A stretch of 64,000 bases of DNA, taken from assembly GCF_004336745.1 (NCBI RefSeq), contig NZ_SJXD01000026.1, positions 1 to 64,000 on the forward strand, written 5' to 3'. Below are positions 43,717 through 44,751 of this stretch, in pieces. A program made the position numbers and the translations under genes. The stretch comes from Roseococcus sp. SYP-B2431. GTDB lineage: Bacteria; Pseudomonadota; Alphaproteobacteria; Acetobacterales; Acetobacteraceae. Position 1 is the first letter of the stretch. Each line of letters opens with the position of its first letter. The notes under the pieces were generated by a model. That model searched no databases. It worked only from the letters and a program-made list of their open reading frames with translations, and was not told the DNA's origin.

Positions 43717-43791
43717 GCCGACTTAGCTCAGGGGTAGAGCAACTGATTCGTAATCAGTAGGTCCGGGGTTCGATTCCCCGAGTCGGCACCA
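43717..43791 (+). tRNA. tRNA-Thr (anticodon CGU), CCA encoded
   Basis: A complete cloverleaf. The acceptor stem is GCCGACT/AGTCGGC, with discriminator A and an encoded CCA at 43789-43791. The D-arm contains AGCTCAGGGGTAGAGC, the anticodon arm ACTGA-TTCGTAA-TCAGT carries CGT, and the T-arm is CGGGG-TTCGATT-CCCCG. Its 3' half is duplicated in decayed form at 44711-44751, which suggests use as an integration site. Confidence 0.98.
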
Positions 43792-43904
43792 GCCTCTTCT
43801 TTTGCAAGTTCAAGGCGCTCCAACGTCCTTGAAGCTTGCGCGCGCTCGCGCGTTCCAACACCGCTCCACCAAGCCGCTCCAACTCCTCTTGGATGTTGTG
43901 CGGC

Positions 43905-43935
43905 AGCCCGGCCCGGGAGATCCGCGCCGGGCTTT
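43905..43935 (+). terminator. Hairpin copy 1 (terminator-like)
   Basis: Arms AGCCCGGC (43905-43912) and GCCGGGCT (43926-43933) enclose a 13-base loop and are followed by TTGCG. A copy with two differences in 29 bases lies at 44301-44329. It is the first hairpin downstream of tRNA-Thr, about 115 bases after it. Confidence 0.55.
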
Positions 43936-43945
43936 GCGCGTCTCG

Positions 43946-43962
43946 CCTATCGATCCGATAGG
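43946..43962. promoter_or_regulatory. Operator-like inverted repeat upstream of small membrane protein
   Basis: CCTATCG-ATC-CGATAGG is a perfect seven-base inverted repeat with a three-base spacer, centred about 70 bases before the start codon at 44025. Its spacing is suited to a dimeric repressor. No regulator gene is adjacent, so binding is a guess. Confidence 0.35.
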
Positions 43963-44024
43963 TATCGTCGCATTGCCCGCCTGGGAACCGGCCCGTATGG
44001 CTTTGACGTCCGGGAGGATCAAAA

Positions 44025-44282
44025 ATGCATGCAACTTCCACCACTGCCTTCATCGCCGGCTTCTTCGCAGGAGGCATAGCCCTCGGCGCTATTGTCGCGC
44101 AGGCCCGAATGAATGTGCTGAACGGAAGTGCTGGCGGGGTTACGCCGGGCACGGGGGCCAGCTTGTTCTGCGTGACTGCGAGCAATTCTGTCCGGGCTGT
44201 GACCGGGACGATGCGGCCGGTCAGCGTCGGAGCGCCGGGTGGAGGAAGCTCCGGCGGCGTCGAGCTGCGATGCCCTCAGTGA
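44025..44282 (+). CDS. Small predicted membrane or exported protein of unknown function
   Basis: An 85-residue product. Residues 6-27 are a single hydrophobic segment (TTAFIAGFFAGGIALGAIVA), and the rest is Gly/Val/Ser-rich with two cysteines. I know no family. Its support is contextual: GGGAGG seven to eight bases before the ATG, a perfect inverted repeat further upstream and a terminator-like hairpin 19 bases after the stop. It is the only plausible gene between tRNA-Thr and its decayed copy. It could be a cargo gene of a lost element or a leftover of one. Confidence 0.5.
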   Translation: MHATSTTAFIAGFFAGGIALGAIVAQARMNVLNGSAGGVTPGTGASLFCVTASNSVRAVTGTMRPVSVGAPGGGSSGGVELRCPQ

Positions 44283-44300
44283 CGGGGTGCTAGAGTTGCT

Positions 44301-44332
44301 AGCCCGGCCGGGGAGACCCGCGCCGGGCTCTT
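44301..44332 (+). terminator. Hairpin copy 2 (terminator-like)
   Basis: Arms AGCCCGGC (44301-44308) and GCCGGGCT (44322-44329) with CTTTGCG after them, 19 bases behind the stop of the small membrane protein. It is nearly identical to the hairpin at 43905, so the two form a direct repeat flanking that gene. Confidence 0.6.
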
Positions 44333-44710
44333 TGCGTGTCGGAGATGGTGTTGGGTCGCAATGATGGGTGCCGGAAAGGCCCACATTGAAAGCTATCGGC
44401 TCGTCGGGAGCGCTGCTCTCGCTGAAGTGCAGCGCGAATACTGGCGCAGCTGTGCCTATGGCGGAGAAACGTCATAGAGGGGCGCATCGCATCATACCGT
44501 TGCGCCACCCTTCCGCTACCGATCTGGACGGGGCGCCTACTTCTTGGACCTGAGCCTCATCTCCGCCCGCCGCCGGATCGCGGTGCATGCGGATCCGCAT
44601 GCATTATGAGGGTCCACATTGGAAGGCCGGGTTCCATCGGACGCCCTTGCCGCAATCCTGCGGCCGGCGCTGTCGGAACGGTCATTGATTCGGTTGAACT
44701 CTGCGCGAAC
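44333..44710. other. Gene-free stretch inside the putative tRNA-Thr scar
   Basis: About 380 bases with no frame I would call a gene on either strand. It contains a GCATGCGGATCCGCATGC palindrome (44586-44603) and patches of lower GC than the chromosome around it. Short open frames exist but lack ribosome binding sites and composition bias. Confidence 0.5.
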
Positions 44711-44751
44711 TCGTAATCAGTTAGGTTCGGACTTCGGTTCCTCGAGTCAGC
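44711..44751 (+). repeat. Decayed copy of the tRNA-Thr 3' half
   Basis: Aligned to tRNA-Thr positions 43748-43787, 34 of 40 bases match, with one extra T. The first eleven bases (TCGTAATCAGT) are identical, and TTCG and CGAGTC of the T-arm are kept. It cannot fold as a tRNA because the 5' half is missing. It is best read as an old att-type duplication. Confidence 0.75.

What the first reader, a model, noticed from the sequence alone, without database searches (positions are those of the whole stretch)
43717..44751. Decayed direct repeat of the tRNA-Thr 3' half marks a possible integration scar
Seen: 34 of 40 bases plus one insertion match between 43748-43787 and 44711-44751, starting with eleven identical bases. 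Known: many elements integrate at tRNA 3' ends and leave a duplicate of the tRNA end at the far border. Inference: about 960 bp between the repeats are what remains of such an element. No integrase is visible, so it is a relic or non-autonomous.
Basis: partly seen in the sequence, partly recalled or inferred. Interest (0 to 1): 0.7.

Follow-up and report, generated by a model that had tools for sequence, protein, structure and literature searches.

The report
Old insertion scar beside tRNA-Thr gene
About a thousand bases after a threonine tRNA gene lies a worn copy of that gene's last half, most likely the footprint of a mobile element that once inserted there, at a spot where related bacteria still carry inserted elements; it is a good example of an ordinary kind of genome scar.

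Summary
In detail: positions 32-71 of tRNA-Thr(CGT) (43748-43787) recur at 44711-44751, 34 of 41 columns identical; score 45 against at most 29 for the reversed query on 989 kb, both strands. The bases before the copy resemble the tRNA 5' half no better than shuffles (p 0.81), so it is not a decayed whole tRNA. In 17 of 17 same-genus flanks fetched, sppA precedes the tRNA; what follows differs between subclades. Empty and filled sites pair up: G004 with G010 (15.1 kb) and G015 with G008 (25.2 kb). G010, G008 and G035 islands end in 45-47 nt copies of this tRNA half, with a tyrosine integrase gene just inside. G007 has an intact copy followed 2.6 kb later by the block found at window 50500. So 44711 is best read as a decayed attR, integrase lost. 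The interval keeps one intact 85-aa gene; G006 has a homologue between tRNA-Thr and a weaker, different repeat. Against: no integrase remnant, no empty site with this genome's own flank, no copy seen in sister G012. Ordinary kind, well supported.

The parts
42689..43600 (-). sppA-like signal peptide peptidase gene (name recalled, not from a call), last gene of the conserved left flank (trpB-trpF-pyrF-ihfB-sppA, names likewise recalled)
   Evidence: tblastn next to tRNA-Thr in 17 of 17 same-genus flanks fetched; no match in the 9 other-genus flanks, in the stretches fetched
43717..43791 (+). intact tRNA-Thr(CGT); integration target and left boundary (attL side)
   Evidence: ARAGORN and Rfam
43748..43787 (+). 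tRNA positions 32-71, the part repeated at 44711
   Evidence: local alignment
43905..43945 (+). hairpin-forming sequence, 85% like 44301-44341
   Evidence: the repeat finder; short genome matches to this stretch
43946..43962 (+). palindrome CCTATCGATCCGATAGG, 62 bp before the small gene; same motif before homologues in G006 and G016
44025..44282 (+). small gene, 85 aa, N-terminal hydrophobic stretch by eye (perhaps secreted), no Pfam family; retained inside the interval
   Evidence: intact frame; homologues in 6 of 21 genus genomes, own included; no Pfam hit
44301..44341 (+). second hairpin copy, just after the small gene (terminator-like by eye)
   Evidence: the repeat finder
44711..44751 (+). 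decayed copy of the tRNA-Thr 3' half; inferred attR relic
   Evidence: 34/41 columns, score 45 against null maximum 29
44752..50499 (.). rest of the variable zone: a protein gene without Pfam family, DUF892, Mn catalase, class II aldolase and GGDEF genes
   Evidence: Pfam names. No close match beside tRNA-Thr in the same-genus flanks; only GGDEF-domain similarity of 35-40% near tRNA-Thr in G014, G020, G009, G018
50500..53691 (.). first chromosomal block shared with G007, where it follows an intact tRNA-Thr 3' half by 2.6 kb
   Evidence: 83% over 3195 bp

Best explanation
44711-44751 is the displaced and now decayed 3' half of the tRNA-Thr gene: the right attachment site (attR) left by an element that a tyrosine integrase once inserted into the anticodon-loop region of this tRNA. 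The incoming element supplied a new 3' half, so the tRNA at 43717-43791 stayed intact and under selection, while the displaced half drifted. Most of the element, integrase included, was later lost, leaving about 920 bp between the two copies with one maintained small gene. Shown: the repeat, its restriction to the 3' half, the variable site, and islands of the same architecture in relatives. Inferred: that this particular copy arose the same way, and that the 920 bp are element DNA.
For: Score 45 against at most 29 for the reversed query. Only the 3' half is copied, from tRNA position 32; the clear copies in relatives start at 29-31 (G010 and G008 29, G019 30, G035 and G007 31) and run to the 3' end. 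Same strand and downstream, as displacement predicts. Paired sites: G004 empty against G010 15.1 kb, alignment unbroken from tRNA position 24 through the copy into the flank (95% over 4132 columns); G015 empty against G008 25.2 kb (83% over 4409). An integrase gene starts about 140-185 bp inside the right copy and reads inward in 3 of 3 cases, among the 12 genomes searched, where a copy of at least 97% lies on the tRNA's own contig (G010, G008, G035); the integrases share only 24-34% identity in BLAST segments. G007 has a copy at C193:15551 (45/46 to this tRNA, 47/47 to its own), then the block that is at window 50500. G019 looks intermediate: 45/48 copy, 1.6 kb between, no PF00589 match on that contig.
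Against: No integrase or fragment of one found in 43792-44711: six frames against Pfam, nothing at E up to 5; tblastn with three integrases gives nothing better than E 7.3 there. The nearest PF00589 match on this contig is about 298 kb away. No empty site with this genome's right flank was found. Sister G012 has no recognisable copy in the stretches read. The copy fades before tRNA positions 72-75. G014 and G005 have insertions at the tRNA without a recognisable copy, so not every insertion here leaves one. G006's repeat covers another part of the tRNA (59-76). G007's tRNA and copy are on different contigs, and neither contig (C61, C193) shows an integrase.
Confidence: 0.87

Rival explanations
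1. The copy is a decayed complete tRNA-Thr duplicate (for instance a tRNA gene carried by an element, as in G008) whose 5' half has worn away.
For: G008's island does carry a full divergent tRNA-Thr close to its left end.
Against: 5' half indistinguishable from chance (p 0.81) while the 3' half keeps 83%; no ARAGORN or Rfam signal.
Confidence: 0.03
2. A partial duplication of the tRNA by ordinary DNA repair or replication slippage, without an integrase.
For: No integrase remnant found; G005 shows a direct duplication of 390 bp of flank not tied to the tRNA.
Against: The copied part starts within 1-3 nt of the start of the clear copies in G010, G008, G019, G035 and G007, at a locus with paired empty and filled sites.
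Confidence: 0.06
3. Chance similarity.
For: None beyond the general possibility.
Against: At most 29 for the reversed query against 45.
Confidence: 0.01
4. The repeat is the border of a small non-autonomous element carrying the 85-aa gene, moved by integrases acting in trans, rather than the relic of a large island.
For: G006, in another subclade, also has a homologue between tRNA-Thr and a 17/18 copy of the tRNA end, 991 bp apart.
Against: No DNA match between the two intervals was found (protein 57%). The G006 copy is a different part of the tRNA (59-76) and scores 31 against a control maximum of 25 (33 against 29).
Confidence: 0.08

Closest known systems
tRNA-targeted genomic islands as catalogued in Islander (PMC4383910; passages seen), anticodon-centred class (A)
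   Same: An intact tRNA gene and a same-strand 3' fragment downstream mark the two ends; the fragment begins in the anticodon loop.
   Different: No integrase between them; 963 bp start to start, below Islander's 2 kb minimum; fragment decayed to 83%.
tRNA gene fragments left by mobile elements, as in Pyrococcus yayanosii PYG1 (PMC9897764; passages seen)
   Same: Partial tRNA copy paired with a complete gene.
   Different: There 44-bp repeats still frame a 21.4 kb island; here little is left between the copies.
The tRNA-Thr islands of the same genus (G010, G008) and family (G035) found here
   Same: Same tRNA, nearly the same start of the copy, same orientation of the displaced half.
   Different: They are 15-42 kb with an integrase just inside the right copy.

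Membership tests
tRNA-targeted genomic island (Islander definition) | tRNA gene plus fragment of it on the same strand, 3' fragment downstream | tested here: met
tRNA-targeted genomic island (Islander definition) | integrase gene between tRNA and fragment | tested here: not met
tRNA-targeted genomic island (Islander definition) | length 2-200 kb | tested here: not met
   963 bp start to start
tRNA-targeted genomic island (Islander definition) | fragment reaches the end of the tRNA gene | tested here: inconclusive
   match covers positions 32-71 of 75; Islander tolerates a small deletion near this place
Integration scar (attR relic) at a tRNA hotspot | relatives with empty and filled sites at the same tRNA | tested here: met
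   G004/G010, G015/G008, G015/G019
Integration scar (attR relic) at a tRNA hotspot | empty site sharing this genome's own right flank | tested here: inconclusive
   none found; G007 shares the flank from 50500 but seems filled, G012 shares it from 53593 on another contig than its tRNA
Integration scar (attR relic) at a tRNA hotspot | copy confined to the displaced half | tested here: met
   5' half p 0.81
Decayed whole tRNA gene | similarity to the 5' half and tRNA fold | tested here: not met

The most novel reading that the evidence does not exclude
The 85-aa gene with its own upstream palindrome, lying between tRNA-Thr and a tRNA-end copy about 1 kb away in two separate subclades of the genus, is a minimal mobile cassette that uses other elements' integrases to enter tRNA genes.
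Probability: 0.06. Interest if true: 0.5.

Novelty: new member of a known kind. Interest (0 to 1): 0.27.

Why it matters
It suggests a decay series for one attachment site within one bacterial family: empty site, full island with integrase (15-42 kb), a 1.6 kb remnant with a 94% copy and no integrase domain on its contig, and about 1 kb remnants with an 83% or shorter copy. Islander's filters as described (integrase required, 2 kb minimum) would reject the last two stages. It also shows that integrases of only 24-34% identity use the same part of tRNA-Thr(CGT).

Tried and rejected
Whole-tRNA pseudogene: rejected by the 5'-half test, Rfam and fold. Integrase remnant in the interval: six frames against Pfam gave no family at E up to 5; tblastn with three local integrases gave E 7.3 at best there, and 0.02 at best anywhere in window 40001-64000. 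Mobility of the 85-aa gene: no match in viral contigs, plasmids or phages; a weak PHROG match (E 0.047, unknown function) is not counted as evidence. Flanking tRNA-Gln repeat at the G007 copy of the 85-aa gene: none found (best score 20). A 103-aa frame just inside G019's right copy looked integrase-like by eye but had no Pfam or PHROG hit, so it is not used. The gene at 44785-45213 as a marker of the right flank: only in this genome among 21 genus genomes, and one other of 299 family genomes with two weak matches (33-34% identity). Literature: three searches showed no title on tRNA-Thr islands in this bacterial family among the 15, 10 and 10 papers listed; two papers were seen in passages, the rest as listings, so no claim that it is unreported is made.

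The flank survey covered 27 tRNA-Thr flanks: own, 17 of the 20 same-genus relatives and 9 of the 15 same-family relatives. Not fetched: G001, G002, G013 (best matches only 77-79% over the tRNA), G022, G023, G027, G029, G032, G033, and the 24 same-class genomes. G034 has two tRNA-Thr half copies 9 kb apart on a contig without the tRNA; it was not among the 12 genomes searched for integrases. Flanks were scanned for copies over at most 16 kb.

Full report
Observation. tRNA-Thr(CGT) lies at 43717-43791 on the + strand. Its positions 32-71 (43748-43787) recur at 44711-44751, same strand, with 34 of 41 aligned columns identical and one extra base. The alignment score is 45. The same query reversed never exceeded 25 on 98 kb of this contig, both strands, nor 29 on 989 kb of other fetched loci, both strands. 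The similarity stops at the anticodon loop: the preceding 75 nt match the tRNA 5' half no better than shuffles (p 0.81), Rfam sees no tRNA there at E up to 10, and the stretch does not fold as one. So it is a 3'-half copy.

The locus in relatives. I compared 27 tRNA-Thr flanks: this genome, 17 of 20 same-genus genomes, and 9 of 15 same-family genomes. In all 17 same-genus flanks sppA lies directly upstream of the tRNA; where the contig reaches far enough the order trpB-trpF-pyrF-ihfB-sppA-tRNA is kept, with about 6 kb extra between trpB and trpF in G020. In the 9 other-genus flanks sppA was not found. Downstream, gene content differs between subclades. Gene names here are recalled; only the downstream genes were run against Pfam.

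Empty and filled sites. G004 aligns with G010 at 95% over 4.1 kb without a break from tRNA position 24 through G010's second tRNA half into the flank, with 15.1 kb between tRNA and copy in G010. G015 and G008 are related in the same way at 83%, with 25.2 kb. G019 has a 45/48 copy 1.6 kb from the tRNA, then about 0.8 kb, then the flank shared with G015. G014 and G005 have about 8.2 and 2.0 kb extra relative to G017 but no recognisable second copy. In another genus, G035 has a 44/45 copy 42.5 kb downstream.

Integrases. In 12 genomes searched for PF00589, the three with a copy of at least 97% on the tRNA's own contig (G010, G008, G035) each have a tyrosine integrase gene starting about 140-185 bp inside the right copy and reading inward. 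The three proteins share 24-34% identity in BLAST segments, so different integrases use one site. This genome's nearest match on the contig is about 298 kb away, and none is visible in the interval. G019's and G007's contigs at the site show none either.

This genome's right flank. G000 and G012 are sisters, with G007 next (five-gene tree). In G007 a tRNA-Thr 3' half (45/46 to this tRNA, 47/47 to its own) lies at C193:15551, and 2.6 kb later begins a block 83% identical to window 50500-53691. In G012 synteny with this genome begins at window 53593, on another contig than its tRNA. I infer that the chromosomal right flank of this lineage starts near 50500-53600 and that 43792 to about 50500 is a variable zone, with the 44711 copy inside it. 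In several other genus genomes the 50500 block lies elsewhere (in G015 nearly 2 Mb from the tRNA). G007's site appears occupied (tRNA on one contig, copy on another), so it gives a shared flank but no empty site. G012 shows no copy in the stretches read.

What is in the 920 bp. One intact gene, 44025-44282, codes an 85-aa protein with no Pfam family. Homologues occur in 6 of 21 genus genomes, own included, in 5 of 299 family genomes, own included, one of them weak and with a stop, and at 9 loci in the GTDB contigs, some of them the same records; none was found in the viral, plasmid or phage collections. A palindrome, CCTATCGNNNCGATAGG, stands 62-65 bp upstream here, in G006 and in G016. In G006 the homologue also follows tRNA-Thr, and a 17/18 copy of tRNA positions 59-76 lies 991 bp after the original. 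That copy is weaker (31 against a control maximum of 25; 33 against 29), and G006 is in another subclade, so I leave common descent of the two intervals open.

Mechanism. A tyrosine integrase recombined an element's attP with the anticodon-loop region of tRNA-Thr; the element restored the tRNA and displaced the old 3' half to the right, where it decayed; deletion then removed most of the element. Integration at this site in relatives is shown by the paired sites; for this genome it is inferred. This is the anticodon-centred class in Islander's terms (passages of PMC4383910); by the filters described there (integrase, 2 kb) the relic would not be listed.

Verdict.

Noticed in passing
L045 12000-12460 (G008): G008's 25 kb island splits the tRNA-Thr(CGT) gene at about position 39 and carries a complete, divergent tRNA-Thr(CGT) about 95 bp further in; a pattern search with up to 3 mismatches finds no other copy of that part in the genome, so the island may have replaced the host tRNA.
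   Followed up: partly
window 43946-43962 and upstream of homologues in L072, L074: Palindrome CCTATCGNNNCGATAGG upstream of the 85-aa gene; here and in some homologues (not G006) followed 6-7 bp later by CGCATTG. Looks like a regulator site.
   Followed up: partly
window 43905-43945 and 44301-44341: Two 85% alike hairpin-forming sequences on either side of the 85-aa gene; short matches to the second recur in several genomes of the genus.
   Followed up: no
L052 4084-4156 (G010): ARAGORN calls the displaced tRNA-Thr 3' half of the G010 island a tRNA gene, the kind of mis-annotation described in PMC9897764 (passages).
   Followed up: no
window 53593-58100: A gene block lies 9.8 kb from tRNA-Thr here but directly beside it, in the opposite orientation, in G011 and G016.
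   Followed up: no
window 45530-47211 and L042 17577-19698: DUF892 and Mn catalase genes follow tRNA-Thr at 1.8 kb here and at 9.6 kb in G031 of another genus.
   Followed up: no
L117 390-414 and L121 7301-7375: One 103 kb IMG/VR contig holds tRNA-Thr and an exact match to 25 bases of its 3' half about 99.8 kb apart, as a prophage at this site would.
   Followed up: no
L073 1501-1925 (G007): Another homologue of the 85-aa gene lies about 100 bp from a tRNA-Gln, and about 0.9 kb from a homologue of the aldolase at window 48329-49090.
   Followed up: partly
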